A DNA stretch of 64,000 nucleotides. Origin: Klenkia brasiliensis (GTDB lineage Bacteria; Actinomycetota; Actinomycetes; Mycobacteriales; Geodermatophilaceae). The notes beneath the pieces were generated by a model, which did not search any database, was not told the origin of the DNA, and was given only the letters and a program-made list of their open reading frames with translations. Location: positions 310,001 through 374,000 of the forward strand of contig NZ_FNCF01000003.1 of NCBI RefSeq assembly GCF_900100695.1, read 5' to 3'. Numbering within the stretch: the stretch's first letter is position 1; the number at the start of each line of letters is the position of its first letter. Made by a program: the position numbers and the translations under genes. Positions 8,395 through 24,201 of the stretch are shown one piece after another.

Positions 8395-9177
<783 letters not shown>

Positions 9178-9894: not shown

Positions 9895-9900
9895 CCGGCC

Positions 9901-9906
9901 ATCCTG
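9901..9906 (-). promoter_or_regulatory. candidate -10 element for the DinB-like gene (leaderless)
   Basis: CAGGAT on the minus strand, 6 nt before the GTG at 9894. The same hexamer precedes the VOC gene at 23160. Confidence 0.3.
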
Positions 9907-9927
9907 GCGCGGATCGGCGGGTGCGGT

Positions 9928-10278
9928 CTACCGCTCGTCGTACCGCAGCGCGGCCAGGCAGACCGCACCCCAGAGCGCCGCGAAGCCGACGGTCTTGCCC
10001 CAGGTGCCCCGGCCGCGCAGGGCCACCCCGAGCACGGCGGCGTCGCCCCAGTCGCTGGCCACCCGGGCGCCGACGGCGGCCCGGCGGGCCGGGCCGGCGG
10101 GGGCGAGCACCATGGCCAGCCCGATGGCGGTGTCGCGCACCCCGACCAGCCGGGTGAGGGTGCGGGCGTCGCGGTTGCGGGCCAGCCCGGCGGGCCGCTG
10201 CAGCAGCTGGGGGCGGGCGACGAGGGCGGCCGAGTAGGCGGCGGTGGCGGCGCCGGTGAGCACGGTCAGAGCAGGCAC
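9928..10278 (-). CDS. small membrane protein of unknown function
   Basis: A 116-residue protein with about three or four hydrophobic segments: ALTVLTGAATAAYSAALV near the N-terminus, DTAIGLAMVLAPAG, WGDAAVLGVALRG and TVGFAALWGAVCLAALRY. The pattern LTRLVGVRDTAIGLAMVL resembles small actinobacterial integral-membrane proteins of the DUF4267 kind, but I cannot confirm the family. The GTG start has a strong GGAGG 6 nt upstream. It follows the glycan operon on the same strand, 78 nt after its last gene, and could be read through from it. No functional prediction is offered. Confidence 0.6.
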   Translation of the reverse strand: MPALTVLTGAATAAYSAALVARPQLLQRPAGLARNRDARTLTRLVGVRDTAIGLAMVLAPAGPARRAAVGARVASDWGDAAVLGVALRGRGTWGKTVGFAALWGAVCLAALRYDER

Positions 10279-10356
10279 GGGGGTCCTCCGGGGGTCACGC
10301 GGTCAGGGGTGCCCGTTGGCTGGAGCCCCGTCGCCCTACCCCGGGCCCGGCGGGGG

Positions 10357-11226
10357 TCAACCGGCCAGCGCGGCCACCAGGCGCGCCCGCTGGTCGGCGG
10401 CGGCGCGGGCGACGTCCGCCCAGGCGGGCAGCACGGGCTCGGCCGGCAGCAGACAGCGGTCCAGGGCGGCGTCCAGCGCGGTCGGGTCCACCTCGTCGGC
10501 GCCCAGCAGCACCGGCCAGCCCAGCGCCGCCGCCTGGGCGCTCACCTTCGCCCCGCCCACGACCGGGTCGACGGCGATCACCGGCCGACCGCGGCCCAGG
10601 CCGAGGACCAGCCCGTGCAGCCGGGAGCTGACCACGACGTCGGCCCGGCCCAGCACCGCCTGCACCTGCGCCACGTGCTGCCGCTGGCCGGAGGGGGTGA
10701 GCAGGTCGGTGGCGACGTCGAAGGACCCCAGCCCGCGGTCGGCGACCCACCGCTCGACGACGTCCTGCACGTGGGCGTGCCGGCCGCGCGCGCCGTACTC
10801 GGGCTGGACCGGGGCGAAGACGGTGGCGACGACGGCCGGGCCGTCGCGGGGCGGGTCGATGGCCAGGTCCGGCCGGGGCGGCGACCCGGGGGCGTCCCGC
10901 GGCCAGACCGCGTCGAACCGGGCGGCCGCCGCGCGGTCCACCACCGACACCCCGACGGCCAGCCGGCGGGCGCGGGGGAACCGGTCGAGCAGGCCGGTGA
11001 GCAGCGGGTCCTCCAGCAGCGGTCCGCACACCCAGACCAGGTGGGTGTAGCCGGCCGGGTCGACGCGGGCGTGGTCCACCCCCCGGTCGAGGTAGCGGGC
11101 CCAGGCCACGTCGTGCGGGATGCCCGCGCCGGTCAGCCAGCCGCCGACCACCTCGGCGGCGCGCTCGTCGCCGACGGTCGCGATGACCTCGGTGAAGCTG
11201 AACCAGCCCACCACGAGCACCCTCAT
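10357..11226 (-). CDS. polysaccharide pyruvyl transferase-like protein
   Basis: A 289-residue protein of the polysaccharide pyruvyl transferase fold (PF04230, CsaB/WcaK-like). It begins MRVLVVGWFSFTE and carries the typical C-terminal block DVVVSSRLHGLVLGLG followed by GRPVIAVDPVVGGAKV. Family members transfer pyruvate from phosphoenolpyruvate onto glycan hydroxyls as ketals, changing charge; some relatives act differently, so pyruvylation is a prediction. It is the last gene of the heptose-glycan operon, and its ATG overlaps the preceding stop by one base (TGATG). It may add a final modification to the glycan. No signal peptide; cytosolic. Confidence 0.75.
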   Translation of the reverse strand: MRVLVVGWFSFTEVIATVGDERAAEVVGGWLTGAGIPHDVAWARYLDRGVDHARVDPAGYTHLVWVCGPLLEDPLLTGLLDRFPRARRLAVGVSVVDRAAAARFDAVWPRDAPGSPPRPDLAIDPPRDGPAVVATVFAPVQPEYGARGRHAHVQDVVERWVADRGLGSFDVATDLLTPSGQRQHVAQVQAVLGRADVVVSSRLHGLVLGLGRGRPVIAVDPVVGGAKVSAQAAALGWPVLLGADEVDPTALDAALDRCLLPAEPVLPAWADVARAAADQRARLVAALAG

Positions 11227-12155
11227 CAGGTCACCGGGTACTTCGGTGCCGAGCCGGCGGGGAGCCCGGCCAGCCGGGCGGCGTCCCAGGCGGCGAACCG
11301 GCGCTCCTCGAGCACCCGCAGCCCGGCGTCGACGTCGTCGGGCAGGGGCCGGCGGCGGGCCAGCACCCACGGCACCCCGCGCAGCGCCAGCAGCACCCCG
11401 CGGACCAGGTCGGCGTCGCGCGGGGCCGAGCGCAGCACGAACACCGTCCAGCGCAGCGCGCTGCGCCACGGCCGGTGCAGCCAGGCGTTCCACAGCGTGT
11501 TGCGCAGGCCCCAGTGCCGGATCCGGGTGTGGTTGGCCAGGCTCGGGTGGTGGTGCATGACCACGTCGTCGACGTAGCGCATCAGCCAGCCCTCGCGCAG
11601 CAGCGGATGGGCCAGCGTCTCCTCCTCGCCGCCGATGAGGAACTCCGGCGCGTACCCGCCGACCTGCTCGTAGGCGGCCACCCGGACCACCGACGCGCCG
11701 CCCATGAAGCTGAGCAGCACGGTGCCGGGCACGCCCTCGGTCTCCGGCAGCGGGCTGGCGGCCATCTCGGCCGAGATCGGGTCCGGGGCCTCCTCGTCGC
11801 CGACCACGATGCGGGCGTTGACCAGGGCCAGCCGGGGGTGGGCGTCGAGCAGGGCGACGGCCCGTTCGAGCCCGGCCCGCTCCCACCAGCCGTCGTCGTC
11901 GCAGAAGACGACGTAGGGCGTGGTGGCGGCCCGAACGCCCTCGGTGCGCCCGGCCGCGCCGGTGTTGGTGGGCAGGGCGCGCACCCGGACCCGGGGCCGG
12001 GCCGCCAGCAGCGCACGGGTGCCGTCGGTGGAGGCGTTGTCCACCGCGACCACCGGCAGCTCCAGCTCGGCGAGGCGGTCGAGGGTGTGCGGCAGCCAGG
12101 CCGCGCAGTCGTGGGTCAGCAGCACCACGGTGAGCCGGTCGGCCAGGCCGGTCAC
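11226..12155 (-). CDS. GT2 family glycosyltransferase
   Basis: A 309-residue GT-A-fold glycosyltransferase. The N-terminus VVLLTHDCAAWLPHTLDRL, the donor-binding VAVDNASTDGT and the DxD-type YVVFCDDDGWW motif are clear, and the later EFLIGGEEETLAHPLLREGW block matches the ED acid/base region of GT2 enzymes. It would transfer a nucleotide-activated sugar to the growing glycan at the cytosolic side of the membrane; donor and linkage cannot be read from sequence. The GTG start overlaps the GT9 stop codon by 4 nt (GTGA). A Trp/Arg-rich stretch around RHWGLRNTLWNAWLHRPW may contact the membrane. Confidence 0.85.
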   Translation of the reverse strand: MTGLADRLTVVLLTHDCAAWLPHTLDRLAELELPVVAVDNASTDGTRALLAARPRVRVRALPTNTGAAGRTEGVRAATTPYVVFCDDDGWWERAGLERAVALLDAHPRLALVNARIVVGDEEAPDPISAEMAASPLPETEGVPGTVLLSFMGGASVVRVAAYEQVGGYAPEFLIGGEEETLAHPLLREGWLMRYVDDVVMHHHPSLANHTRIRHWGLRNTLWNAWLHRPWRSALRWTVFVLRSAPRDADLVRGVLLALRGVPWVLARRRPLPDDVDAGLRVLEERRFAAWDAARLAGLPAGSAPKYPVT

Positions 12156-13072
12156 GCGGCGACCTCCGCGGCCGCGGCGAGCACGTCCCGCACGGTGGTG
12201 CGCAGCAGCACCGGGTCCACCTCGGTGCCGTGCGGGTCCCCGCGGTACCCGGGGTCGTCGGCCGGCCACAGCACCCGGTGCCGCGGGTGCACCGGCGGGC
12301 CCCAGCGGCGCGGCGACACCGGGCCGCTGAGCACCACCGAGGGCGTGCCGAACACCGCGGCCACGTGCGCGGTGCCGGTGTCGCCGGACAGCACCAGCCG
12401 GGCGGCGGCGACCAGCCCGCACAGCTCCTGCACGGAGAGGTCGACCAGCGCCGGTGCGCCGTCGGCGACCGTGTCGACCAGCGAGCGCTCCTCCGCCGTC
12501 CCCGTGACCACGACGCGGTGGCCGGCGCCCCGCAGCGCGTCCGCCACGGCGGACCACCGCTCGGCCGGCCAGCGGCGGGACCGGGACGCCGCCCCGGGGT
12601 GCACCACCGTCGACCCGGGCCGCACCGGCGGGGGCACCGGCAGCAGGCCCTCCAGCGGCGGCGGGGTGGCCGGGCCGCCCAGCTGCTCGGCGACCAGCCG
12701 GCACCAGCGGTCGACCTCGTGCTCGTCGTCGTCCCACACCGACCGGTCCGCGGCCGGGCCGTCCCCGGGCCGGGCGAAGCCGATCGTCCGGGCCGGCCCG
12801 AGGGCGAGCAACGGGTGCTTGGACGCCGGGCCGTTGCCGTGCAGGTCGACCGCGAGGTCGGGTCGGGCGGGCAGGCCGGCCACGTGGTCGAGGTGCTCGA
12901 CGGGGACGACGTCGTCGACCAGGCCGGACCCGCACAGCACCTCGGCGAACCGTTCCGGCGCGCCCAGCACCACCCGCCAGCCGGGCAGCCGGCGGCGCAG
13001 CAGCGCGAGCGCCGGCAGGCCGGTGACCATGTCGCCCAGGCCGATGGCGCGCAGCACGACGCAGGTGCTCAT
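12152..13072 (-). CDS. GT9 family (heptosyltransferase-like) glycosyltransferase
   Basis: A 306-residue GT-B-fold enzyme of family GT9, whose characterised members transfer L,D- or D,D-heptose from ADP-heptose in Gram-negative LPS cores. Visible features are LRAIGLGDMVTGLPAL at the N-terminus, DLAVDLHGNGPAS, then VVHPGAASRSRRWP and the donor-site block LVLSGDTGTAHVAAVFGTPSVVLSGP. It directly follows hldE and gmhA, so heptose as donor is a reasonable inference. ATG at 13072 overlaps the hldE stop codon by 4 nt (ATGA). One of two GT9 genes in the operon; the other is at 17091. Confidence 0.87.
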   Translation of the reverse strand: MSTCVVLRAIGLGDMVTGLPALALLRRRLPGWRVVLGAPERFAEVLCGSGLVDDVVPVEHLDHVAGLPARPDLAVDLHGNGPASKHPLLALGPARTIGFARPGDGPAADRSVWDDDEHEVDRWCRLVAEQLGGPATPPPLEGLLPVPPPVRPGSTVVHPGAASRSRRWPAERWSAVADALRGAGHRVVVTGTAEERSLVDTVADGAPALVDLSVQELCGLVAAARLVLSGDTGTAHVAAVFGTPSVVLSGPVSPRRWGPPVHPRHRVLWPADDPGYRGDPHGTEVDPVLLRTTVRDVLAAAAEVAA

Positions 13073-14358
13073 GCCCGGGCCAGCTCGGCGAGCGCGGTGG
13101 TGGACCGCCCGGCCAGGAACGGCACGGTGACCACCCGCCCGCCCCACCCGGCGAGGACGGCGGCCTCCGGCACCGCGACCCCGGAGTAGTCGCCGCCCTT
13201 GACCCACAGCTGCGGGCGCAGGCCGCGCAGCACCTGCTCCGGGGTGTCCTCGTCGAAGACGACGACGTCGTCGACGCAGGCCAGCGCCCGCAGGATGCGC
13301 ACCCGGTCGGCCTGGGGCTGCAGCGGCCGACCCGGGCCCTTGAGCCGGGCGACCGAGGCGTCGGAGTTCACGCACACCACCAGCCGGTCGCCCAGGGCGC
13401 GGGCGGCCTCCAGGGTGGCGACGTGGCCGGCGTGCAGCAGGTCGAAGCAGCCCCCGGTGGCGACCAGCACCCCGGCCCCGGTCGGGGTCGGGGCCGGGGC
13501 GGCGACGTGCGCCGACGCGGCGCGCACCGCGGCGGCGACCGCCTCCGGCGGCAGCGCACCGCCGGCCAGCGCCCACCCGGCCGCGGCGGCGAACGCGTCC
13601 CCGGCGCCGCAGGTGTCCCCGACGTCCACGGTGGGCGCGGGCACGGCCAGCACGCCGTCCTCCCCCACCGTGGCCAGCGCGCCGGCCGCGCCGAGGGTGA
13701 CCGCGACCGTGCCGGCGGCCCACTGCGCGCGCAGCGCCAGCGCCCGGTCGGCGACCGCGCCGACGTCGGGCCGCGGGCCCGGGTCGGCGCCGGTCGCCTC
13801 GACGGCGTTGGGCGTGACCAGCCGGCAGCCGGGCACCGGCGGGGCCCCGCGGGGGTGCGGGTCCCACACGACCGGCCGGCGGCGGGCCAGGGCGGTGAGC
13901 AGACCGCGCAGCTCCGGGTCGGCGGTGGCGCCCAGGCCGTAGTCGGCCACCACCACGGCGTCGGCCCCGGCGAGCACCGTGGCCACCGCGTCGGGCAGCG
14001 GGCCGACCGGGCCGGGGTCGCCGCCCCGGTCGACCCGGGCCACGGTCTGCCCACCGGCGCGGATCCGGTGCTTGACCGCGGTGCTCCCGGCCCAGGGCAC
14101 CGCGACGAGCTCCACCCCGGCCGGCAGCACCGACCGCAGGGTGGCGCCGTCGGCGTCCTCGGCCAGCGGGGTGACCAGCACGACCCGGCCGGCGCCGTCG
14201 GCGGCGGCGAGCGCGGCGACCAGCCCGGCGCCGCCGGCTCGGGTCCGCTCGGCGGCGGCGCGCACGACCGGCACCGGCCCGTCGGGCGAGAGCTTCTCGG
14301 CCCGGCCGTCGGTGTCGACGTCGAGCAGGGTGTCCCCGACCACGACCAGCGTCCTCAC
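13069..14358 (-). CDS. hldE: HldE-type bifunctional heptose 7-phosphate kinase / heptose 1-phosphate nucleotidyltransferase
   Basis: A 429-residue two-domain enzyme. Residues 1-290 are a PfkB/ribokinase-type kinase: VVVGDTLLDVDTDGRAEKLS, SPDGPVPVV, the glycine pair RAGGAGLVA and the catalytic GAGDAF (251-256, D254). Residues 298-429 are a cytidylyltransferase-fold domain: GGCFDLLHAGH (HxGH at 309-312), VNSDASVARLKG and LWVKGGDYSG. This is the HldE architecture, which phosphorylates D-glycero-beta-D-manno-heptose 7-phosphate at C1 and later adenylylates the 1-phosphate to ADP-heptose. Nucleotide specificity cannot be proven from sequence. With GmhA next door and a GmhB domain at 18092, all three non-epimerase steps of the pathway are present. 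GTG start overlaps the gmhA stop codon. Confidence 0.9.
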   Translation of the reverse strand: MRTLVVVGDTLLDVDTDGRAEKLSPDGPVPVVRAAAERTRAGGAGLVAALAAADGAGRVVLVTPLAEDADGATLRSVLPAGVELVAVPWAGSTAVKHRIRAGGQTVARVDRGGDPGPVGPLPDAVATVLAGADAVVVADYGLGATADPELRGLLTALARRRPVVWDPHPRGAPPVPGCRLVTPNAVEATGADPGPRPDVGAVADRALALRAQWAAGTVAVTLGAAGALATVGEDGVLAVPAPTVDVGDTCGAGDAFAAAAGWALAGGALPPEAVAAAVRAASAHVAAPAPTPTGAGVLVATGGCFDLLHAGHVATLEAARALGDRLVVCVNSDASVARLKGPGRPLQPQADRVRILRALACVDDVVVFDEDTPEQVLRGLRPQLWVKGGDYSGVAVPEAAVLAGWGGRVVTVPFLAGRSTTALAELARA

Positions 14359-14954
14359 GGCGCACCCGCCAGCAGCCGGGCGTCGAGCTCGGCGTCCAGG
14401 CCCGCGCACAGCACGTGCAGCAGCACCAGGTGCACCTCCTGCACGGTGGCGGTGAACGGGGAGGCGACGACGAGGGCGTCGTCGGCCACCTCGGTGAGCG
14501 CGTTCGGCCCGCGGCCGGTCATCGCCCAGCAGGTGACCCCGCCGGCCCGGGCCCGGCGCGCGGCCTGCACCACGTTCGGGCTGCCGCCCGAGGTCGAGAG
14601 CAGGACGGCGACGTCGCCGGGGCGGGTGTGCGCCTCCAGCTGCCGGGCGAAGCCCTCCTCGTGGCCGTAGTCGTTGGTGATCGCGGTCAGCGCGGACACC
14701 TCGGCGTGCAGCGCCACGGCGGAGAACGGCCGTCGGTCGTCGCGGTAGCGGCCGACCAGCTCGGCGGTCAGGTGCGCGGCCTGCGCGGCGCTGCCGCCGT
14801 TGCCGGCCGCGACCAGTCGGGCGCCGCCGGTCAGCAGCCCGGCCAGCTCCCGCCCCCACCGGGTCGCGGTGGCCACCGCGGCCGCGGACGCGTCCAGCGC
14901 CGCGGTCAGGTGCTGCACGTGCTCGGCCCCGACCGGCGTCGCCGGGCGGGTCAC
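14355..14954 (-). CDS. gmhA: sedoheptulose 7-phosphate isomerase
   Basis: A 199-residue SIS-domain protein, the usual GmhA length. It isomerises sedoheptulose 7-phosphate to D-glycero-D-manno-heptose 7-phosphate, the committed step of activated-heptose synthesis. Features: AAGNGGSAAQAAHLTAELVG with the phosphate-binding Ser and metal-site His/Glu, TAITNDYGHEEGFARQ, and VLLSTSGGSPNVVQAARRA. A phosphoheptose assignment is favoured over other SIS isomerases because of that block and the adjacent hldE. GTG start overlaps the preceding stop codon by 4 nt. Confidence 0.9.
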   Translation of the reverse strand: MTRPATPVGAEHVQHLTAALDASAAAVATATRWGRELAGLLTGGARLVAAGNGGSAAQAAHLTAELVGRYRDDRRPFSAVALHAEVSALTAITNDYGHEEGFARQLEAHTRPGDVAVLLSTSGGSPNVVQAARRARAGGVTCWAMTGRGPNALTEVADDALVVASPFTATVQEVHLVLLHVLCAGLDAELDARLLAGAP

Positions 14955-16147
14955 CGGGCCACCGCCGGGCGGGGCAGCCGTCGGTAGGCGTCCTCGGTCA
15001 TGCGGGCGACCTCCTGCCAGTCGTAGGTGGTGACGACGCGCTCCCGGCCGGCCGCACCCAGCCGCCGGCGGCGGTCGGGGTCGGCGAGCAGCGCGCGCAG
15101 CGCGGCGGCCAGCGCGGCCGGGTCGCGGGGCGGGACGAGCAGGCCGGTGCCGCCGTCCACGACGGTGTCGGTGAGCCCGCCGACGGCGGTGCCGACCACC
15201 GGGACGCCGCAGGCCATGGCCTCCAGCGGCACGATGCCGAACGGCTCGTACCAGGGCGCGCACACCACGACGTCGGCGGAGCGGATCCAGGCCGCCACCT
15301 CGTCGCGGGCACCGCGGCCGACCAGCCGGACCCGGTCGGCGACCCCGCGGGCGGCCGCGGCGGAGTGCACCTGGGCGGCGGCCGGGTCGGCGTCGAGCAC
15401 CTCGGCCGCCGGGCCGCCCAGCACCACCAGCTCGGCGCCCGGGACGTCGGCCAGCGCGGTGAGCACGTCGCCCAGGCCCTTGCGCGCCACCAGCCGGCCC
15501 ACCACCAGCAGCCGCGGCGCCCCGCTGCGGGGCGCCCGCGGCCCGTCGGGGGTGAAGGCCGTGGTGTCCACCCCGCTGGGCACGACGGTGACCTTCCGCC
15601 GGTCCACGCCGAGGGCGACGAGCTCGGCCACCTCGTCGGCGCAGGTGGCGACCACCCCGGCCGCGCGGCGGGCGACCGCGGTCTCGACCCGGATGCGCAC
15701 CGACGGGCTGGTGTCGGCGGCGCCCTGCCAGCGGCGCTTGACCGAGCCCAGTGCGTGGAAGGTCTGCGCGACCGGCACCCCGAGGCCGTGCGCGGCGTCG
15801 ACGGCGGCCCGGCCGCTCATCCAGAAGTGCGCGTGCACCACGTCGGGCGGGTCGGCCCGCAGCTCGGTGCGCAGCGCCGCGGCCAGCTCCGGGACGTGCG
15901 GCCAGAGCTGGTCCTTGGGCACCTCCTTGGGCGGGCCGGCGTCCAGGTGGCGCACCACCACGCCGGGCGCGAAGTCCACGGTCGGCGGGAGGTCGACGTC
16001 GTCCCGGCGGGTGTGCACGACGACGGCGTGGCCGCGGGCGGCCAGCGCGCGGGCCAGCATCGCCACGTGCACGTTCTGCCCGCCGGCGTCCTCCCCGCCC
16101 AGGGTGGCCAGCGGGCTGGCGTGCTCGCTGACCAGGTCGACCCTCAC
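14951..16147 (-). CDS. GT4 family glycosyltransferase (MshA/sucrose-synthase-like N-terminus)
   Basis: A 398-residue GT-B retaining glycosyltransferase. The N-terminus VDLVSEHASPLATLGGEDAG and QNVHVAMLARALAARGHAV resembles MshA and sucrose-phosphate synthase-type enzymes. The C-terminal domain has LLVVGRLVARKGLGDVLTAL and the GT4 EX7E motif around APWYEPFGIVPLEAMACG. The donor may be a UDP- or GDP-sugar or an activated heptose; sequence alone does not decide. GTG start overlaps the upstream stop codon by 4 nt (GTGA). It is probably not the mycothiol enzyme MshA, because the setting is a glycan operon. Confidence 0.85.
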   Translation of the reverse strand: MRVDLVSEHASPLATLGGEDAGGQNVHVAMLARALAARGHAVVVHTRRDDVDLPPTVDFAPGVVVRHLDAGPPKEVPKDQLWPHVPELAAALRTELRADPPDVVHAHFWMSGRAAVDAAHGLGVPVAQTFHALGSVKRRWQGAADTSPSVRIRVETAVARRAAGVVATCADEVAELVALGVDRRKVTVVPSGVDTTAFTPDGPRAPRSGAPRLLVVGRLVARKGLGDVLTALADVPGAELVVLGGPAAEVLDADPAAAQVHSAAAARGVADRVRLVGRGARDEVAAWIRSADVVVCAPWYEPFGIVPLEAMACGVPVVGTAVGGLTDTVVDGGTGLLVPPRDPAALAAALRALLADPDRRRRLGAAGRERVVTTYDWQEVARMTEDAYRRLPRPAVAR

Positions 16148-17094
16148 CGGGCCACCTCGGCGAGCAGGCCGTCGAGGTCGCCGAGGAACCGGTCGAGGCC
16201 GAACCGCGCCAGCGCGGCCGCCCGGGCGACCTGCCCGGCCGCGCGCGCGGAGTCGGGGTCGGCCAGGAACCACCGGACGGCGTCGACCAGCGCCTCGACG
16301 TCCGCGGCGACCACCCCGGCCCCGTCGGGGACGGCGGTCGGGGCCTCCGTCGTCGCGAGCACCACCACCGGGCAGCCCATCGTCATCGCCTCCACCAGGG
16401 ACAGGCCCAGCGAGGTCCACCGCGTGAGGTGCAGGTGGACCCGGCGCCGGGCGACCTCGTCGTGCAGGGCGTGCTGCGGCAGGTCCTCGAACTCCCCGAC
16501 CGTCGTCCCCAGGGCGGCGGACGCGCCGGTGACCTGCATGCCGAACAGGTCCAGGCCGAAGGGGGCGAAGTGCGGCAGCAGGTCGGTGCCGACGGTGCGG
16601 CCGCGGCGCAGCGGCTCGTTGCTGACCACCGACACCCGGGGCAGCTCGCCGGTCCAGCGGGGGCCGGGGTCGACCACGCCGTGCTCGAGCACCCGGGTGG
16701 GGGCCACCCCGTTGTCCCAGGCGACGCGGTTGAAGTGCGTGACGTGCACCAGCGGGACGTCGGCGCGGTCGGCGAGCAGGTGCCGGCTGCCGGCGGGGGT
16801 GGGCGGGGTGTCGTGCTCGACGTAGAGCGCCGGGACGTCGACGCCGGCCTCCCAGCCGGCCCACGCCCGCAGCAGCTCCAGGTCCCGCGGCCGCTGCAGC
16901 ACCACGACGTCGACCCCGGCGTCGCGGACCTGCTCGGGCGTCACCTCGACCACCGAGGCCGGCCAGTCCCACGTGCGCGCCCGCCCCAGCCCGTCGCCGG
17001 TGCGGCCGGGGACCACCGGCACCAGGTAGCGGTGCTCCCCCTGCACGACGGCGGTCAGCCAGGACCCGTGCACGTGCCAGACCAGGACGTTCAC
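16144..17094 (-). CDS. glycosyltransferase, GT4/GT1-like, unassigned
   Basis: A 316-residue GT-B-fold protein with a divergent N-terminal half (VNVLVWHVHGSWLTAVVQGE) and a clearer C-terminal half: VSVVSNEPLRRGRTVGTDLL, DLFGMQVTG, HLHLTRWTSLGLSLVEAMTM and GCPVVVLATTEAPTAVP. The TSLGLSLVEAM block corresponds to the EX7E-type donor site of GT4 enzymes, but the first acidic residue appears to be missing, which may lower or alter activity. YVEHDTPPTP in the middle resembles the corresponding loop in cell-surface galactosyl/mannosyl transferases. It lies within the glycan operon, with GTGA overlaps at both ends. Substrate unknown. Confidence 0.75.
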   Translation of the reverse strand: MNVLVWHVHGSWLTAVVQGEHRYLVPVVPGRTGDGLGRARTWDWPASVVEVTPEQVRDAGVDVVVLQRPRDLELLRAWAGWEAGVDVPALYVEHDTPPTPAGSRHLLADRADVPLVHVTHFNRVAWDNGVAPTRVLEHGVVDPGPRWTGELPRVSVVSNEPLRRGRTVGTDLLPHFAPFGLDLFGMQVTGASAALGTTVGEFEDLPQHALHDEVARRRVHLHLTRWTSLGLSLVEAMTMGCPVVVLATTEAPTAVPDGAGVVAADVEALVDAVRWFLADPDSARAAGQVARAAALARFGLDRFLGDLDGLLAEVAR

Positions 17095-18095
17095 GCCCGC
17101 ACCCCCACCAGCCGCTGCACGCCCTCGACCACGGCGGCCGGGTCGACCCCGGCCAGGCAGGGGTGGCCGGGCAGCGGGCACACCCGGGCCCGGCTGCCCG
17201 CGCACGCCGCGCGCTGGTCGCCGAGGACCACCCGGCGGTCGGTGAGCGGGGCCCACCGGAGGGCCGGCACGACCGGGGAGAACAGGCTCACCACGGGGGT
17301 GCCCACGGCGGCGGCCAGGTGCGCCGGGCCGGTGTTGCCGACGGCGACGGCGTCGGCGCCCCGCAGCACGGCGGCGAGCTCGGCGACGGTCAACCGGGCG
17401 CCCAGGTCCAGGCCGTGCCCGGCGGCCACGACCGAGGTGAGCGCCCGCTCGTCCGGTCCGCCGGTGACCACCACCGCGTGCCCGGCGCGCGTCAGCGCCG
17501 CCACCACCGCGCGCCAGCGGTCGGGCGGGTAGCTGCGGGCGGGGGCGTCGGCCCCGGGGTGCACCACCACGTAGCGGTCGGGCAGGCCGGCCACCGCCGG
17601 CAGCACGTCCACCAGCGCGAGCCGGCCGTCGTCCCCGGGCGGGAGGGCGAACCCGGCCCCGGCCGCGACCTGCAGCATGCGCACCGGCTCGGGCGCGTCG
17701 GCGGGCTCGGACAGCCGGACGTCCAGCAGCGACCCGGGGAAGTCGGTGCTCACCGCGGCCACCCGCGGCACCCCGGCCAGCCGGAGCAGCAGCGCGGTGG
17801 GCAGCGCGCTCTGGTGGAAGGAGGTGAGCACCAGCGCGGTGTCGAACCGGCCGCGCAGCCGGTCGACCAGCCCGGCCACCGCGGCGGGGTCGACCGGGCC
17901 GGCCCCGGCGGAGATCCAGGGCGCGTCGAAGACCTCGACGTCGTCCACCCCGGGCAGCAGCCGGGCCACCTCAGCACTGCGCGGCCCGGCCAGCACCGTC
18001 GTCGACGACGAGCCGGCGGCCACGGCCCGGACCGCCGGGCCGCACACCACGACGTCGCCGAGGGAGTCCAGCCGCACCACCAGGGCCCGGCTCAC
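17091..18095 (-). CDS. GT9 family (heptosyltransferase-like) glycosyltransferase
   Basis: A 334-residue GT9 enzyme, the second in the operon. Motifs: ALVVRLDSLGDVVVCGPAVR at the N-terminus, FDTALVLTSFHQSALPTALL, VVVHPGADAPARSYPPDRW and DAVAVGNTGPAHLAAAVGTP followed by VVSLFSPVVPALRWAP. A Cys-bearing tail (CAGSRARVCPLPGHPCL) near the C-terminus could form disulfides or bind a metal. By family it should transfer heptose from ADP-heptose. Two different GT9 genes suggest at least two heptose additions or two acceptor positions, which is inference. GTGA overlaps on both sides place it in the coupled chain. Confidence 0.87.
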   Translation of the reverse strand: MSRALVVRLDSLGDVVVCGPAVRAVAAGSSSTTVLAGPRSAEVARLLPGVDDVEVFDAPWISAGAGPVDPAAVAGLVDRLRGRFDTALVLTSFHQSALPTALLLRLAGVPRVAAVSTDFPGSLLDVRLSEPADAPEPVRMLQVAAGAGFALPPGDDGRLALVDVLPAVAGLPDRYVVVHPGADAPARSYPPDRWRAVVAALTRAGHAVVVTGGPDERALTSVVAAGHGLDLGARLTVAELAAVLRGADAVAVGNTGPAHLAAAVGTPVVSLFSPVVPALRWAPLTDRRVVLGDQRAACAGSRARVCPLPGHPCLAGVDPAAVVEGVQRLVGVRA

Positions 18096-19594
18096 CGCTG
18101 CCCCACCACCAGCGCGACGGCGGTGCCCAGGTCGCGCGCGACGGCGGGGGCGGCGGCCAGCTCGGCGGTGCGGGTCCCCGCGGTGGGCACCAGGACCGCG
18201 CGGGCGCCGGCGGCGTGCGCGGCGGCGACGTCGGACCCGATGTCCCCGACCAGCACGCAGTCGGCCGGCTCGACGCCGAGGGTCGCCGCCGCGGCGAGCA
18301 CCGACCCGGGCGCGGGCTTGCGGCAGGCGCAGCCGTCGTCCGGCCCGTGCAGGCACACCGCCCAGGCGTCGAAGGGGCCGAGCAGCTCCTCGACCCGGTC
18401 GTGCACGGCGGCCAGGTCGCGGGCGGTGAACGCGCCGCGGGCCAGGCCCGACTGGTTGGTCACCACCCCGACCGGCAGCCCGGCGGCGCGCGCGGCCCGG
18501 ACCGCCTCGACCGCGCCGTCGACGGGCCGCACCCGCGCCGGGTCGCCGTTGTAGGGGACGTCGACGACCAGGGTGCCGTCCCGGTCGAGCAGCAGGGCCC
18601 TCGTGCGCGGGGCCTCGTGCACCGGGCGCGGCGGGGTGGGCCGGGTCAGCGCGCGCAGCCACCACCAGGTCGCGGCCGGCGGGATCGCGGCGCTGGTGAG
18701 CAGCATCGTGGTCACCTCGGCGCGGTCCCGCGGCCCGGGGCCGATGCGGGCCCACGCGAACTCGGCGGTGCCCGCCGCCCACAGGGCAGCCGCCGCCGGG
18801 CTGCGCAGGGTCAGGGCGGCCAGCCCGGCGGCGGTGAGGACGAGGTGGCGCGGACGGCGCCCGGCCGGGGCGTGCGCGCGGTCGCCCCAGAGCCGGCCGT
18901 GGAACCGGGCCATGAGGACGTCGTCGGCGTTGCCGCGCTGCTGGCGCAGGCTGGTCCACCGGCCGGTGGGGCGCACCGGGTGGGTGGTGCGGCGCCGGCC
19001 GACGACCAGCCGCCGGCCGGTGGCCTGCACCCGCAGCGCGAGGTCGGCGTCCTCCCGGAAGGCGCGGGGGAAGCGCTCGTCGAACCCGTCGACGGCGGCG
19101 AGGACGTCGCGGCGGTAGGCCATGTCGGCGGTGATCCACCACGCCGTCGCCAACCCGGCGGTGCCGCGCTCCCAGTCGGTCGGCCGGCGCCCGGCCGGCA
19201 GCGGGACGTCGATCTCCGCCTGGGTGCCCGCGAGCCCGTGCCGGTCGGCCTCGGCGAGGTCGGCGGCGAGGTCGGCGCACCAGTGCGGCCCGACCACGAC
19301 GTCGTCGTCGAGGAAGGCGACCCAGGCCGTGCCCGGCGGGACGGCACGCCACCCGGTGTTGCGGGCGGCGGCCGGTCCGCGCCCACCGCCGTGCAGCACC
19401 AAGACGTGCCGGGCGACGTCCGGGGGCAGGTCGCGGACGTCGACCACCGGGGTCTCCCCCGGCTCCCGCCGGTCGTCCACGACGACCAGCCACGTCGGCC
19501 GCGGGCCGTCGGCCGCGGCGAGCGCGTCGAGGAGGACGCGCAGCGAGGTCCGCCCCAGCGTGGGGACGACGACGGCGTAGTCCGGGTCACCCAT
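18092..19594 (-). CDS. fusion of a GT2 glycosyltransferase with a GmhB-type HAD phosphatase
   Basis: A 500-residue fusion. Residues 1-235 are a GT2 domain (VVVPTLGRTSLRVLLDAL, ARNTGWRAVP, DDD at 96-98, FREDADLALRVQ). Residues about 250-320 include hydrophobic stretches that may be membrane helices. Residues 332-500 are a HAD-IIIA phosphatase of the GmhB type: DRDGT (337-341), TNQSGLARG (379-387), the zinc-binding pattern CLH...CACRKPAPG (C414, H416, C422, C424) and GDIGSD (450-455). GmhB removes the C7 phosphate of heptose 1,7-bisphosphate between the two HldE steps. No other GmhB gene is in the window, so this domain probably supplies the activity. ATG at 19594; it overlaps the carbamoyltransferase gene by 8 nt. 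Confidence 0.88.
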   Translation of the reverse strand: MGDPDYAVVVPTLGRTSLRVLLDALAAADGPRPTWLVVVDDRREPGETPVVDVRDLPPDVARHVLVLHGGGRGPAAARNTGWRAVPPGTAWVAFLDDDVVVGPHWCADLAADLAEADRHGLAGTQAEIDVPLPAGRRPTDWERGTAGLATAWWITADMAYRRDVLAAVDGFDERFPRAFREDADLALRVQATGRRLVVGRRRTTHPVRPTGRWTSLRQQRGNADDVLMARFHGRLWGDRAHAPAGRRPRHLVLTAAGLAALTLRSPAAAALWAAGTAEFAWARIGPGPRDRAEVTTMLLTSAAIPPAATWWWLRALTRPTPPRPVHEAPRTRALLLDRDGTLVVDVPYNGDPARVRPVDGAVEAVRAARAAGLPVGVVTNQSGLARGAFTARDLAAVHDRVEELLGPFDAWAVCLHGPDDGCACRKPAPGSVLAAAATLGVEPADCVLVGDIGSDVAAAHAAGARAVLVPTAGTRTAELAAAPAVARDLGTAVALVVGQR

Positions 19595-21263
19595 CGGCGG
19601 CCGGCCCCTCGCCCGCCAGCCCGTCGTGCGCCCACGAGCGGTGCACCACGAACGGCCCGATGGCCAGCAGGTCGACCGGGCCGGAGCCGAAGCACTCCAG
19701 CGCGTCCCGGGGGGTGTCGACCATCGGCCGGCCGGCGGTGTTCAGGCTGGTGTTCACCACCACCGGCAGGCCGGTGCGGGCCTCGAACCCGGTGAGCATG
19801 CGGGCCACCAGCGGTTCGGTCGCCGGGTCGACGGACTGGATCCGCGCGGTGCCGTCGACGTGCACCACGGCGGGGATGCGGTCCCGCCAGGCGGGGGCGA
19901 CGTCGTGCACGAAGAGCATGTGCGGGCTGGGCACCGGACCGCGGGAGAAGATCTCCTCGGCCCGGTCCAGCCGGACCATCGGCGCGACCGGGCGGAACTG
20001 CTCGCGGCCCTTGACGTCGTTGAGCCGCTCCAGGTTGGCCGCCCGGCCGGGGTGCGCCAGCAGCGAGCGGTGGCCCAGCGCCCGCGGCCCGAACTCGCTA
20101 CGGCCCTGGAACCAGGCGACCACGCCGTCGGCGGCGAGCACCCGGGCGACCTCGTCGGCGACGTCGTCGCTGCGCCGGTAGGCCACCTGCGCGGTGCGCA
20201 GCACGGCCTCGACCTCGTCGTCGGTCCAGCCCCGGCCCAGGTCGGCGCCGGGGAACGGGGCGGTGGGCTCACCGCCCCGCCAGGACAGCTCCAGCGCACC
20301 GCCCAGCGCCGTCCCGGCGTCCCCGGCCGCGGGCTGCACCCACAGGTCGGCGAACCCGGACTCCGCCGCGAGGCGGGTGTTGGCCACGCAGTTCAGCGCC
20401 ACGCCGCCGGCCAGGGCCAGCCGGGTCTCCCCCGTGGCGTCGCGCAGCCAGCGCGCGAGGTCGAGCAGCACCTCCTCGACCACCAGCTGCACGCTGGCGG
20501 CGAGGTCGGCGTGCTCGTCGGTCCACGGCTCGTCGGACCGGCGCGCCTTGGCCAGCGCGGCGAGGTCGACACCGGCGGTGGTGAACCCGCCGTCCCCGGT
20601 GGCCCGCACGAGGGTGCGCAGCGCCTCGGCGTGCCGGGGCCGGCCGTAGGAGGCCAGCGCCATCACCTTGAACTCGTCGGAGCTGCGCAGGAAGCCCAGG
20701 TGCGCGGTGACGTCCTCGTAGAGCAGCCCGAGGGAGTGCGGCAGCTGCTGGGTCGCCAGCACCTCCAGCACGCCGTCGCGGTAGACCCCGGCCAGCGAGC
20801 TGTGCCGCTCCCCGCGGCCGTCCAGCACGAGGACGGCGCAGCTGCCGCCCCAGGGTGCGGCCAGCGCGGCCGAGGCGGCGTGCGCGACGTGGTGCGGGAC
20901 GAAGCGGACCCGGTCGGGGTCCAGCCCCGGGATGCCCTCGGCGAGGAACCACGGTGCCTGCCGGGCGTAGGTGAGCCGGAGGTGGTCCCACGGGTCGTGC
21001 ACCCCGGCCCGCTCCGGCGCCAGGTGCAGGTCGGGGTCGTAGGAGTAGGCGACGGCGTCGAGGTCCTCGGGGCGCACCCCGGCGTGCGCCAGGCACCAGG
21101 CGGCGGCCTGGTCGGGGGTCTCCCAGGCGGAGAACGGGACCGGCCGCTTGCCGTGCTTGCGGCGGCTGAACCGCTCCTCCTCGGCCGCGGCGACCACCCG
21201 GCCGTCGACGACGACCGCCGCGGCCGGGTCGTGGAGGAGGGCGTTGATGCCGAGGACGCGCAC
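19587..21263 (-). CDS. carbamoyltransferase of the NodU/CmcH family
   Basis: A 558-residue carbamoyltransferase. It starts MRVLGINALLHDPAAAVVVD, and the nucleotide/metal-site motif VPHHVAHAASAAL follows (about residues 122-135). The C-terminal YrdC-like part contains GVVAWFQGRSEFGPRALGHR and PVVVNTSLNTAGRPMVDTP. These enzymes move the carbamoyl group of carbamoyl phosphate, through carbamoyl-AMP, onto hydroxyls of Nod factors, antibiotics or sugars. In this operon the likely acceptor is a sugar of the heptose-containing glycan, which is inference. GTG 21263 has GAGGTGA 3 nt upstream. First gene of the ten-gene operon. Confidence 0.9.
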   Translation of the reverse strand: MRVLGINALLHDPAAAVVVDGRVVAAAEEERFSRRKHGKRPVPFSAWETPDQAAAWCLAHAGVRPEDLDAVAYSYDPDLHLAPERAGVHDPWDHLRLTYARQAPWFLAEGIPGLDPDRVRFVPHHVAHAASAALAAPWGGSCAVLVLDGRGERHSSLAGVYRDGVLEVLATQQLPHSLGLLYEDVTAHLGFLRSSDEFKVMALASYGRPRHAEALRTLVRATGDGGFTTAGVDLAALAKARRSDEPWTDEHADLAASVQLVVEEVLLDLARWLRDATGETRLALAGGVALNCVANTRLAAESGFADLWVQPAAGDAGTALGGALELSWRGGEPTAPFPGADLGRGWTDDEVEAVLRTAQVAYRRSDDVADEVARVLAADGVVAWFQGRSEFGPRALGHRSLLAHPGRAANLERLNDVKGREQFRPVAPMVRLDRAEEIFSRGPVPSPHMLFVHDVAPAWRDRIPAVVHVDGTARIQSVDPATEPLVARMLTGFEARTGLPVVVNTSLNTAGRPMVDTPRDALECFGSGPVDLLAIGPFVVHRSWAHDGLAGEGPAADG

Positions 21264-21392
21264 GGGTCACCTCGCAGCTCACCCGGGAGGCCGGGGGTCT
21301 GCTCAGCGCGCGGTTCGACTGGCCGGGTCATGACAGCACGGGCCCGGGGGGTCCCGCACGTCGACCGGTCGCGGTCGCCGCCCGGAGGGGGC

Positions 21393-21398
21393 TACGGT
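21393..21398 (+). promoter_or_regulatory. candidate -10 element for the epimerase/decarboxylase gene
   Basis: TACGGT lies 44 nt before the GTG at 21443. The leader would be about 38 nt long and carry GGGAG just ahead of the start. It sits in the 179-nt divergent spacer shared with the glycan operon; for the operon itself I can point only to its ribosome-binding site, not to a convincing promoter. Confidence 0.35.
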
Positions 21399-21442
21399 CG
21401 GCCCGGCTCGAAGACGCGGCCGCCCTCTCGACGGGAGCCGCC

Positions 21443-22489
21443 GTGCCCAGCCCCCAGCCCGCCGTCCCCTTCCGGCACGCCGTCGTCACCGGCGGCGCCG
21501 GGTTCCTGGGCTCGCACCTGTGCGAGCGCCTGCTGGCCGCCGGCACCCGGGTGACCTGCATGGACGACCTGTCCACCAGCGACGGCAGCAACATCGCCCA
21601 CCTGCGGGGCGACCCCGCGTTCGCCTTCGTCCGGCACGACGTGAGCACCCCGTTCACCACCAGCGACGACGTCGACCTGGTGCTGCACCTGGCCTCGCCG
21701 GCCTCGCCGGCGGACTACCTGCGGCTGCCGGTGGAGACGCTGCGGGTGGGCAGCGCGGGCACCGGGCACGCGCTGGAGGCCGCCCGCCGGACCGGGGCGC
21801 GGATGGTGCTGGCCTCGACGTCGGAGACCTACGGCGACCCGCAGGTGCACCCGCAGCCGGAGAGCTACTGGGGCCACGTCAACCCGGTGGGGCCGCGCGG
21901 GGTCTACGACGAGGCCAAGCGGTTCGGCGAGGCGCTCACCACGGCCTACCGCAGCGCGTACGGGGTGGACACCGCCATCGTGCGCATCTTCAACACCTAC
22001 GGGCCGCGGATGCGCCGGGACGACGGCCGGGCGATCCCCACCTTCATCGCGCAGGCGCTGACCGGGCAGCCGATGACCGTCGCCGGGGACGGCAGCCAGA
22101 CCCGCTCGGTCTGCTTCGTCGACGACACCGTGCGCGGCATCCTGGCCGTGGCGGGGTCGGACCTGCCGGGGCCGTTCAACGTGGGGCTGCCCGAGGAGCG
22201 GTCGGTGCTGGACATCGCCCGGGCGGTGGCGGCGGTCGTCGGCGTCCCGCCGGACGTGGAGTTCGTCGGCCGCCCGGTGGACGACCCGTCGGTGCGCTGC
22301 CCCGACATCACCGCGATCCGCACCCGGCTGGGGTGGGAGCCGCAGGTCGGGCTGGCCGAGGGGTTGGCGCGCGCGGTCGCGTGGTTCCGGGAGACGGCGC
22401 CGGCTGGGGCACACTCGGGGGATGGCGACCCGGGGGCTGGTGCGGTTGGTGAACACGTCGGGTCGGGGCGTGCTGTGCCTGGCCGGTGA
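21443..22489 (+). CDS. NAD-dependent sugar epimerase/dehydratase, UDP-glucuronate decarboxylase-like
   Basis: A 348-residue extended SDR. It has TGGAGFLGSHLCERLL for NAD binding, the Ser/Tyr/Lys triad in ASTSETYGDP and VYDEAKRFGEAL, and the blocks IVRIFNTYGPRMRRDDGR and TRSVCFVDDTVRGILAVAG, which are close to UDP-glucuronate decarboxylases (UDP-xylose synthases). It is much less like ADP-heptose 6-epimerase (HldD). It would supply a pentose or modified hexose donor for the divergent glycan operon. GTG 21443 has GGGAG 5 nt upstream. The last 25 residues or so look non-homologous (GAGAVGEHVGSGRAVPGR) and overlap the next gene by 68 nt, so the C-terminus may be an extension past the original stop. 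Confidence 0.85.
   Translation: MPSPQPAVPFRHAVVTGGAGFLGSHLCERLLAAGTRVTCMDDLSTSDGSNIAHLRGDPAFAFVRHDVSTPFTTSDDVDLVLHLASPASPADYLRLPVETLRVGSAGTGHALEAARRTGARMVLASTSETYGDPQVHPQPESYWGHVNPVGPRGVYDEAKRFGEALTTAYRSAYGVDTAIVRIFNTYGPRMRRDDGRAIPTFIAQALTGQPMTVAGDGSQTRSVCFVDDTVRGILAVAGSDLPGPFNVGLPEERSVLDIARAVAAVVGVPPDVEFVGRPVDDPSVRCPDITAIRTRLGWEPQVGLAEGLARAVAWFRETAPAGAHSGDGDPGAGAVGEHVGSGRAVPGR
22410..22415 (+). promoter_or_regulatory. candidate -10 element for the small STAS-like gene
   Basis: CACACT is followed by 6 nt and the ATG at 22422. It lies inside the end of the epimerase gene, which would allow independent leaderless transcription of the small gene. Confidence 0.25.
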
Positions 22490-22700
22490 CGTCGACCCGG
22501 CCGCGGTGGCCGACTTCCACGCCCGCTACGGCCGGGAGCCGGTGCCGGTGGACGCGGTGGACACCGGCTCGGTGACCCGGCTGTCCGACGCCGCGCTGGA
22601 CCTGGTCCTCGACCACGTGCGGGCCGGTGAGCTGCGCGGGCGCGAGGTGCCGGTGCTGCGCACACCGCGCCCGGTGGCGGGGTCCGCGCCGCACGCCTGA
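22422..22700 (+). CDS. small STAS-like protein
   Basis: A 92-residue protein whose pattern of strands and helices recalls a STAS domain: VRLVNTSGRGVLCLAGDVDP, then FHARYGREPVPVDAVDTGSV, then TRLSDAALDLVLDHV. The TRLSDAAL stretch aligns with the DSSGL region of anti-anti-sigma factors, with a Ser in the neighbourhood. The N-terminal 23 codons overlap the end of the epimerase gene in another frame. Assignment is tentative, because the domain is short and divergent. If real, it may belong to a partner-switching circuit like the one at the left end. No hairpin is seen between it and the convergent VOC gene. Confidence 0.6.
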   Translation: MATRGLVRLVNTSGRGVLCLAGDVDPAAVADFHARYGREPVPVDAVDTGSVTRLSDAALDLVLDHVRAGELRGREVPVLRTPRPVAGSAPHA

Positions 22701-22725
22701 GCAGTCCTGCGCGTCCCCGTCCGGG

Positions 22726-23160
22726 TCACTGGATGCAGAACTCGTTGCCCTCGGGGTCGCGGAGCACCACCCAGTAGCCGCCGGGCTCCTCCCCCGGCCC
22801 GACCAGCTCCGCGCCGAGCTGCACGAGCTCGGCGGCCCGGGCGTCCACCCGGCGGCGGCGCTCCTCCAGGGGCACGCCGCGGCCCCCGCCCACGGTGACG
22901 TCCAGGTGCACCCGGTTCTTGGCGGTCTTGCCCTCGGGCACCCGCTGCAGCAGCAGCCGGGCACCGACGCCGTCCGGGTCGACCACCGACCAGGCGTCGT
23001 CCCACTCGTCCTCGGGCACGCCGACCGACGCGAGGTAGGCGGGCCAGCTCTCGTGGCCGTCCGGCGGCGGCTGGTCGACGTAGCCGAGCACCTCGGCCCA
23101 GAACCGGCCCAGCCGCTGCGGGTCGTGGGCGTCGAACGTCACCTGGAACGGGTTGGCCAC
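22726..23160 (-). CDS. VOC (glyoxalase/bleomycin-resistance fold) protein
   Basis: A 144-residue VOC-superfamily protein of the glyoxalase-like type common in actinobacteria. Features: VTFDAHDPQRLGRFWAEVLG at the N-terminus, RVPEGKTAKNRVHLDVTV in the middle and GGYWVVLRDPEGNEFCIQ at the end. The His and Glu residues at these places would bind a metal in enzymatic members. Substrate unknown. It resembles the second VOC gene of this window at 44026, sharing the RVPExKTAKNRxHxDV block, so they are paralogues. GTG start 7 nt after CAGGAT, with no Shine-Dalgarno. Confidence 0.85.
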   Translation of the reverse strand: MANPFQVTFDAHDPQRLGRFWAEVLGYVDQPPPDGHESWPAYLASVGVPEDEWDDAWSVVDPDGVGARLLLQRVPEGKTAKNRVHLDVTVGGGRGVPLEERRRRVDARAAELVQLGAELVGPGEEPGGYWVVLRDPEGNEFCIQ

Positions 23161-23167
23161 CCCGCCG

Positions 23168-23173
23168 ATCCTG
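23168..23173 (-). promoter_or_regulatory. candidate -10 element for the VOC gene at 23160 (leaderless)
   Basis: CAGGAT on the minus strand, 7 nt before the GTG start; the spacer to the upstream gene is only 24 nt. Confidence 0.3.
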
Positions 23174-23184
23174 GACCGTCCGGC

Positions 23185-24162: not shown

Positions 24163-24201
24163 CGCTGGCTGGTGCCCACCGCCCCCGCCGGGGCAAACCG
24201 G

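What the first reader, a model, noticed from the sequence alone, without database searches (positions are those of the whole stretch)
10357..22489. Heptose-glycan operon in an actinobacterium
The sequence shows gmhA, an HldE-type bifunctional enzyme, a GmhB domain, two GT9 enzymes, two GT4-type and two GT2 enzymes, a carbamoyltransferase and a pyruvyl transferase-like protein in one operon. GmhA, GmhB and HldE are the established route to ADP-D-glycero-beta-D-manno-heptose, best known from Gram-negative LPS. The rest of the window is ordinary high-G+C actinobacterial chromosome, so no LPS is expected. The inferred product is a heptose-containing, carbamoylated and possibly pyruvylated surface glycan or glycolipid. 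No flippase, polymerase or priming transferase is encoded here, so export must be supplied elsewhere.
Basis: partly seen in the sequence, partly recalled or inferred. Interest (0 to 1): 0.78.

Follow-up and report, generated by a model that had tools for sequence, protein, structure and literature searches.

The report
Portable heptose-glycan gene module in Klenkia
An eleven-gene block in a soil actinobacterium looks able to make and attach an unusual seven-carbon sugar best known from Gram-negative outer membranes; relatives of it occur in many actinobacteria, and closely related strains carry it, lack it, or hold it at another place in the genome.

Summary
Observation confirmed. The window is from a Klenkia (Geodermatophilaceae). 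Ten overlapping minus-strand genes (21263->10357) encode a NodU/CmcH-type carbamoyltransferase, a GT2 enzyme fused to GmhB, two GT9, two GT4, a second GT2, GmhA, HldE and a weak pyruvyltransferase-family protein. All four NDP-beta-heptose steps have a candidate with key motifs kept, though scores lie below strict equivalog cut-offs. The heptose donor is probable; the carbamoylated, pentose-bearing glycan is inferred.

It is not rare: HldE is in 96 of 112 family and 51 of 396 phylum genomes; 61 of 80 named relatives keep GmhB-GT9-GT4-GT4-GmhA-HldE. ADP-heptose synthesis in actinobacteria is already published.

New here: the block behaves as a unit. In one Klenkia genome window 10352-22432 is replaced by 16 bases; another carries the block elsewhere; 4 of 9 Klenkia genomes have it. 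A six-protein tree joins it to soil Frankiales/Pseudonocardiales bins, not to other Geodermatophilaceae, so transfer is likelier than not. Export, acceptor and product are unknown.

The parts
10352..22432 (.). whole module, as bounded by the empty site in Klenkia genome G475 (in G474 the relocated copy aligns over 10372-22404)
   Evidence: blastn of the window against fetched Klenkia stretches
19587..21263 (-). O-carbamoyltransferase of the NodU/CmcH type (TobZ, GdmN and others)
   Evidence: Pfam Carbam_trans_N and _C; PDB 7xb6 E 2.2e-84, 9s2t, TobZ, GdmN
18092..19594 (-). GT2 glycosyltransferase fused to a GmhB heptose-bisphosphate phosphatase (GmhB part about residues 331-489)
   Evidence: alignment A3; one open frame in 33 of 80 relatives
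17091..18095 (-). GT9 (heptosyltransferase family) enzyme a
   Evidence: Pfam GT9 83.7 bits in the longer frame; PDB 3tov, 6dfe and 2gt1 at E 7e-7 to 3e-6
16144..17094 (-). GT4-type glycosyltransferase a
   Evidence: Pfam Glycos_transf_1
14951..16147 (-). GT4-type glycosyltransferase b, closest profile MshA but far below its cut-off
14355..14954 (-). GmhA, sedoheptulose 7-phosphate isomerase
   Evidence: H61, E65, Q172, H180 kept in 80 of 80 sequences
13069..14358 (-). HldE, heptose 7-phosphate kinase plus heptose 1-phosphate nucleotidyltransferase, with FLAGRSTT motif
12152..13072 (-). GT9 (heptosyltransferase family) enzyme b
   Evidence: Pfam GT9 69.1 bits in the longer frame
11226..12155 (-). 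GT2 glycosyltransferase b
   Evidence: Pfam Glycos_transf_2 74.1 bits
10357..11226 (-). protein of the polysaccharide pyruvyltransferase superfamily, activity uncertain
   Evidence: Pfam PF04230 in 8 of 8 homologues; AlphaFold model mean pLDDT 80.5, not compared with solved folds
21443..22489 (+). UDP-glucuronate decarboxylase (UDP-xylose synthase), divergent from the operon
   Evidence: PDB 2b69 E 4.6e-96; present in the same 4 of 9 Klenkia genomes as HldE and the carbamoyltransferase

Best explanation
[quoted passage not shown] Steps: GmhA isomerises sedoheptulose 7-phosphate; the HldE kinase makes the 1,7-bisphosphate; the GmhB part of the GT2 fusion removes the 7-phosphate; the HldE nucleotidyltransferase makes ADP-heptose and, by its FLAGRSTT motif, perhaps also CDP- or UDP-heptose. 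UDP-glucose dehydrogenase encoded elsewhere (contig C3) supplies UDP-glucuronate, which the decarboxylase turns into UDP-xylose. Two GT9 enzymes add heptoses, the GT4 and GT2 enzymes add the remaining sugars, and the NodU-type enzyme carbamoylates a sugar, plausibly a heptose as WapO is thought to do in Pseudomonas. Priming and export would come from the separate polysaccharide locus on C3. Shown: gene content, conserved motifs, gene order, co-occurrence, empty site, relocation. Inferred: every enzyme activity, the sugar sequence, the site of carbamoylation, the envelope location.
For: All four pathway steps have a candidate in one gene block. GmhA residues H61/E65/Q172/H180 in 80 of 80, HldE HxGH/GAGD/KGGDY in 81/80/80 of 81, GmhB metal-loop Cys in 23 of 23 and DxD in 22 of 23. 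GmhA-HldE adjacent in 80 of 80 and the six-gene order in 61 of 80 named relatives. Decarboxylase is UXS-like and, among the 80 relatives, is present in 9 of 10 loci that carry a UDP-glucose-dehydrogenase-family gene nearby against 28 of 70 others (one member of that cluster was profile-scanned). Module present or absent as a whole in Klenkia. Priming and flippase families on C3.
Against: No enzyme tested. GmhA, HldE (kinase part above all, 115.3 of 345 bits) and GmhB score below NCBIfam equivalog cut-offs. GT9 enzymes can in principle use other donors, and their similarity to solved heptosyltransferases is low. No priming, polymerase, flippase or ligase gene in the block, and priming or flippase numbers do not track the module across Klenkia. 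No HldD-type epimerase. Heptose in Klenkia has not been looked for.
Confidence: 0.6

Rival explanations
1. The module makes a small secreted or intracellular glycoside (a natural product), in the manner of septacidin, hygromycin B or the carbamoylated disaccharide of bleomycin, not an envelope glycan.
For: Published uses of ADP-heptose in Streptomyces are natural products (passage). Bleomycin has a carbamoyltransferase, a sugar synthase, a sugar transferase and an epimerase acting on mannose and gulose (passages). No export or priming gene in the block.
Against: No scaffold genes (NRPS, PKS, nucleoside or aminocyclitol enzymes) among the Pfam hits of the module or of the 29 neighbouring window proteins scanned. 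Presence in 96 of 112 family genomes and HldE groups that mostly follow host family fit a conserved structural role better. Up to seven glycosyltransferase domains point to an oligosaccharide.
Confidence: 0.2
2. The enzymes act on hexoses, not heptoses: the HldE kinase and GT9 enzymes have changed substrate, as is described for the bleomycin sugars.
For: Sub-cut-off equivalog scores, kinase part lowest; kinase identity to the solved heptose 7-phosphate kinase is low, E 3.2e-13.
Against: GmhA, whose known substrate is sedoheptulose 7-phosphate, and GmhB are both retained with their metal and catalytic motifs, and GmhA adjoins HldE in 80 of 80 relatives. The solved heptose kinase is still the kinase domain's best PDB match.
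Confidence: 0.12
3. The Klenkia block is the vertically inherited Geodermatophilaceae module, lost in five of nine Klenkia genomes and rearranged in one; no transfer from outside the family.
For: HldE is common in the family (96 of 112). Three carriers hold the block at the same site. In the HldE tree Klenkia lies near other Geodermatophilaceae, at an open fork. No integrase or transposase found beside it.
Against: A tree of six concatenated proteins joins Klenkia to one Pseudonocardiales and one Frankiales bin with support 1.0, apart from the other Geodermatophilaceae. 16 of 17 non-Klenkia Geodermatophilaceae loci show no carbamoyltransferase near HldE (four of them with short upstream sequence) and 16 of 17 have GHSTT where Klenkia has GRSTT. 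Another site in G474. Base composition differs, though a 6-kb stretch elsewhere in the window differs almost as much (0.195).
Confidence: 0.3

Closest known systems
NDP-heptose biosynthetic enzymes of actinobacteria (Tang 2018 PNAS, Tang 2022 Sci China Life Sci 'tridomain NDP-heptose synthetases', Tang 2024 Science; none of the three held, known here from citations and two commentaries)
   Same: GmhA, kinase, phosphatase and nucleotidyltransferase activities predicted; STTR5-type motif; actinobacterial hosts
   Different: In Klenkia GmhA and HldE are separate genes (in one frame in only 6 of 80 relatives) and GmhB is fused to a GT2; whether this operon is described in the 2022 paper could not be checked
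Pseudomonas LPS inner core (two heptosyltransferases and WapO carbamoylating heptose II; passages of PMC8005017)
   Same: Two GT9 enzymes, ADP-heptose route and a carbamoyltransferase in one genome; carbamoyl on heptose is the plausible shared chemistry
   Different: No Kdo, lipid A or heptose kinase genes in the module; no outer membrane expected; WapO itself was not compared by sequence
Bleomycin disaccharide genes blmC-blmG (passages of PMC7017467)
   Same: A sugar synthase, carbamoyltransferase, sugar transferase and sugar epimerase work together on a carbamoylated sugar
   Different: Hexose sugars described there and no GmhA named; the likeness of BlmC to HldE and BlmE to GT9 is recalled and was not tested
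GDP-heptose route of Rhodococcus and Mycobacterium (gmhD, hddA; passages)
   Same: Actinobacterial heptose activation; a gmhD mutant of R. ruber loses its capsule
   Different: GDP-alpha route there; the HldE-type beta route here
UDP-glucuronate decarboxylase UXS (PDB 2b69, 4gll, 4m55, 4lk3)
   Same: Full-length match, E about 1e-96
   Different: Sits in a heptose module; activity untested

Membership tests
NDP-beta-D,D-heptose pathway (GmhA, HldE, GmhB) | All four activities encoded, each best matched by the pathway family | tested here: met
NDP-beta-D,D-heptose pathway (GmhA, HldE, GmhB) | Scores above the curated equivalog cut-offs | tested here: not met
   GmhA 144.4 of 209.45; HldE 234.9 of 521; GmhB 116.7 of 178 bits
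NDP-beta-D,D-heptose pathway (GmhA, HldE, GmhB) | Metal and catalytic motifs kept | tested here: met
   GmhA 80 of 80 for four residues, HldE motifs 80-81 of 81, GmhB DxD 22 of 23 and three loop Cys 23 of 23; residue roles recalled
NDP-beta-D,D-heptose pathway (GmhA, HldE, GmhB) | NDP-heptose formed | not testable with these tools
   needs enzyme assay
Tridomain NDP-heptose synthetase | Isomerase, kinase and nucleotidyltransferase in one chain | tested here: not met
   GmhA and HldE lie in different frames in the window and in 74 of 80 relatives; one open frame in 6 of 80
STTR5-type heptose nucleotidyltransferase | (F/L)XXGRSTT motif | tested here: met
   FLAGRSTT in the window; strict motif in 12 of 81 sequences; motif defined in the commentaries
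UDP-glucuronate decarboxylase (UXS) | Full-length similarity to solved UXS above other SDR enzymes | tested here: met
   E 4.6e-96 against 1.7e-45 for the next family
ADP-heptose 6-epimerase HldD | TIGR02197 above cut-off for 21443-22489 | tested here: not met
   62.9 of 274.6 bits
Polysaccharide pyruvyl transferase | Pfam PF04230 above cut-off | tested here: met
   27.6 of 25.3 bits over 40 residues; 8 of 8 homologues match at E 0.01 or better
Polysaccharide pyruvyl transferase | Match to a solved pyruvyltransferase | tested here: inconclusive
   only 5ax7 at E 0.77; fold search not accepted
NodU/CmcH O-carbamoyltransferase | Both Carbam_trans_N and Carbam_trans_C domains | tested here: met
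   172.4 and 210.9 bits; solved homologues
LPS-type inner core locus | Kdo, lipid A or heptose kinase genes beside the heptosyltransferases | tested here: not met
   none among the module's Pfam hits; the whole genome was not searched for them

The most novel reading that the evidence does not exclude
Actinobacteria carry a swappable, LPS-inner-core-like surface antigen: a carbamoylated heptose-xylose oligosaccharide made by a transferable cassette that is gained, lost and relocated whole between strains, as expected if phages or predators select on it, with an STTR5-type synthetase that may use CDP- or UDP-heptose in place of ADP-heptose.
Probability: 0.22. Interest if true: 0.75.

Novelty: new variant of a known kind. 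Interest (0 to 1): 0.48.

Why it matters
A commentary by authors of the 2024 Science paper (PMC11573728) says that the roles of NDP-heptoses in their producers are largely unknown and suggests looking at genes adjacent to the synthetases. This block gives a concrete test: K. taihuensis and K. terrae carry it while other Klenkia genomes lack it, one with a near-clean empty site, so carriers and non-carriers can be compared chemically. It also predicts which sugars to look for (heptose, xylose, O-carbamoyl).

Tried and rejected
Considered and rejected: that GmhA/HldE belong to other SIS or ribokinase families; that 21443-22489 is HldD or a dTDP-glucose dehydratase (62.9 of 274.6 and 131.6 of 365.1 bits; UXS by PDB); that an obvious mobile element carries the module (no integrase or transposase among the 29 window proteins outside the module that were scanned, nor among 10 flank proteins at the G474 site; no tRNA in the window, nor in six of seven Klenkia stretches scanned, with one tRNA-Gln about 10.9 kb beyond the module's right edge in G474; stretch L150 was not scanned); that the number of priming transferases tracks the module (PF02397 matches 5,3,3,3,5,3,3,3,3 for G000 and G471-G478, fragments counted).

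Led nowhere: Rfam (no hit); boundary repeats (only weak ones at the left edge); paper searches gave no paper on this operon; alignment A1 held three rows read on the wrong strand and was not used; the careful HldE tree did not finish, so the quick one is reported; the first gene-order count penalised paralogues and was replaced by that; the first motif count missed rows and was replaced.
Full report
WHAT IS THERE. The window is G000:C7:310001-374000, GC 75.7%. Its HldE is 95% identical to that of G477, whose contig has the same length (769951) as the Klenkia taihuensis DSM 45962 record of L062, so the genus is Klenkia, Geodermatophilaceae. Ten minus-strand genes run from 21263 to 10357 and overlap at each of nine junctions: carbamoyltransferase, GT2-GmhB fusion, GT9, GT4, GT4, GmhA, HldE, GT9, GT2 and a pyruvyltransferase-superfamily protein. 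Start codons are inferred from these overlaps.

THE UNNAMED GENE. 21443-22489, on the plus strand, is a UDP-glucuronate decarboxylase: 2b69 at E 4.6e-96 over residues 12-319, with UDP-glucose 4-epimerase next at 1.7e-45. NCBIfam gives only SDR hits below cut-off. Its substrate maker, UDP-glucose dehydrogenase family PF00984, has a match in 9 of 9 Klenkia genomes. In the window's own genome that match is on contig C3 at 582.6 kb, near four of five priming-transferase matches (602.9-635.9 kb; the fifth is at 200.8 kb) and the one flippase-family match (637.3 kb). Among the 80 named relatives, 10 loci hold a gene of a cluster whose one scanned member is a UDP-glucose dehydrogenase; the decarboxylase is present in 9 of those 10 and in 28 of the other 70. 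That the C3 locus serves this module is inference.

HEPTOSE CHEMISTRY. GmhA matches 15 solved sequences at E 1e-8 or better, 13 named phosphoheptose isomerase and 2 DiaA, and keeps H61, E65, Q172 and H180 in 80 of 80 sequences (roles as zinc ligands recalled). HldE motifs HxGH, GAGD and KGGDY are in 81, 80 and 80 of 81. The GmhB part matches solved GmhB; in the 23-row alignment the three Cys of its metal loop are invariant and 22 of 23 rows keep the second Asp of DxD and the loop His (L120 is the exception). Against: GmhA, HldE and GmhB score below NCBIfam equivalog cut-offs, the kinase part most of all (115.3 of 345 bits). The window's FLAGRSTT fits the (F/L)XXGRSTT hallmark that two commentaries link to use of CTP and UTP besides ATP (PMC11461863, part 1 of 2 read; PMC11573728, whole). 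The strict motif is in 12 of 81 sequences. A looser pattern, xRST[TS], is in 60 of 81. Of the 17 with GHSTT, 16 are Geodermatophilaceae other than Klenkia and one is Paractinoplanes (with the names).

SPREAD. HldE at E 1e-20 or better: 51 of 396 phylum genomes, 96 of 112 family genomes, 4 of 9 Klenkia genomes (G000, G474, G477, G478). By tblastn (one piece over 60 bits) they hold GmhA 80, GT4b 77, GmhB 75, GT9a 74, GT4a 74, GT9b 69, GT2a 47, decarboxylase 37, carbamoyltransferase 33, GT2b 18, pyruvyltransferase-like 6. Order: GmhA-HldE 80 of 80; GmhB-GT9-GT4-GT4-GmhA-HldE 61 of 80; the eight-gene order from the carbamoyltransferase 18 of 80. Twelve loci have under 7.5 kb upstream of HldE. GT2a and GmhB share one open frame in 33 of 80 (28 no GT2a hit, 9 other frame, 5 no GmhB, 3 far, 2 stop); GmhA and HldE do in 6 of 80. 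In 37 of 80 loci there is a member of one SDR cluster, in 36 just after HldE (one member scanned); the Klenkia module has none.

THE MODULE MOVES AS A UNIT. In G475 (L149) window 1-10351 matches in three pieces at 91-92%, then window 22433-22708 resumes 16 bases later, so 10352-22432 is missing. Window 22709-24210 is also missing there (about 0.4 kb stands in its place), so the spot itself is variable. In G473 the match breaks from 9105 to 24199 with about 1.6 kb between. G477 and G478 hold the module at the same site, but both lack about 0.7 kb just left of it (9193-9931 and 9184-9914), and G478 has about 5.3 kb of other DNA in place of 22390-24200. In G474 window 10372-22404 aligns but nothing of the window's flanks does within the 8.4 and 13.5 kb fetched; the neighbours there include RtcB and a luciferase-like protein. 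HldE, decarboxylase and carbamoyltransferase occur in the same 4 of 9 genomes; one non-carrier, G476, is only 73% complete. Module GC is 78.7% against 75.0% for the rest; 4-mer distance 0.204 against 0.096-0.111 for three 12-kb controls, but one 6-kb stretch at 48 kb reaches 0.195, so composition is weak evidence.

ORIGIN. The HldE quick tree (81 rows) mostly groups rows by host family, with Klenkia on a long branch at an open fork near other Geodermatophilaceae. Six concatenated proteins (75 named loci with at least five of the six, plus the window) join the three Klenkia rows with L067 and L117, Pseudonocardiales and Frankiales bins, at support 1.0, apart from the other Geodermatophilaceae; the next fork is weak (0.263). 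L117 has the Klenkia order from carbamoyltransferase to GT2b. Of 17 Geodermatophilaceae loci other than Klenkia, 1 (L079) shows a carbamoyltransferase, 4 of the other 16 having short upstream sequence. Transfer is therefore more likely than not, but not settled.

KNOWN BACKGROUND. ADP-heptose synthesis in Streptomyces for septacidin and hygromycin B is stated in PMC10221265 (passage). [quoted passage not shown] I saw its citation only. A gmhD mutant of Rhodococcus ruber, of the GDP route, is reported to lose its capsule (passages of PMC12786566 and PMC12298843). Pseudomonas has a putative carbamoyltransferase, WapO, with carbamoyl on heptose II (passages of PMC8005017). A Frankia paper reports a heptosyltransferase-annotated gene raised under salt stress (passage of PMC5563000); its relation to this block was not tested. 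I found no paper on this operon in searches; the library holds openly licensed papers only.

VERDICT. A real heptose-glycan module, ordinary for actinobacteria in its core, of interest for its GT2-GmhB fusion (shared by many relatives), its UDP-xylose synthase and carbamoyltransferase, and its whole-module presence, absence and relocation in Klenkia. Product and location remain to be shown.

Noticed in passing
window 9178-9894 and 22709-24210: Both flanks of the module are variable too: a DinB-family gene on the left (found in 3 of 9 Klenkia genomes, and absent beside the module in G477 and G478) and two genes on the right (glyoxalase-like, NmrA-like) that are missing in G475. The site looks like a hotspot.
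   Followed up: partly
L120:3800-5284: In this Streptosporangiaceae bin the GmhB part of the fusion has lost DxD, the loop His and the following Lys, so the phosphatase is probably dead or the step is supplied elsewhere.
   Followed up: no
L098 (Parafrankia sp. EUN1f): A second, divergent HldE-like and GT9-like pair lies on the opposite strand near the main block (41% and 38% identity).
   Followed up: no
L093:11426-12133 and 36 further loci: A classical SDR follows HldE in 36 of 80 relatives (plus one further off in L080); it could modify the activated heptose. Klenkia lacks it.
   Followed up: no
L076: A contig labelled Chloroflexi carries the block with carbamoyltransferase and GT2-GmhB fusion and its HldE falls among actinobacterial rows: transfer between phyla or a mislabelled bin.
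   Followed up: no
L081, L082, L087 and other Microbacteriaceae/Micrococcaceae loci: An aldehyde-dehydrogenase cluster occurs in 32 of 80 loci and extra GT9 genes on the opposite strand in 15 (one ALDH member scanned), suggesting a different product in these groups.
   Followed up: no
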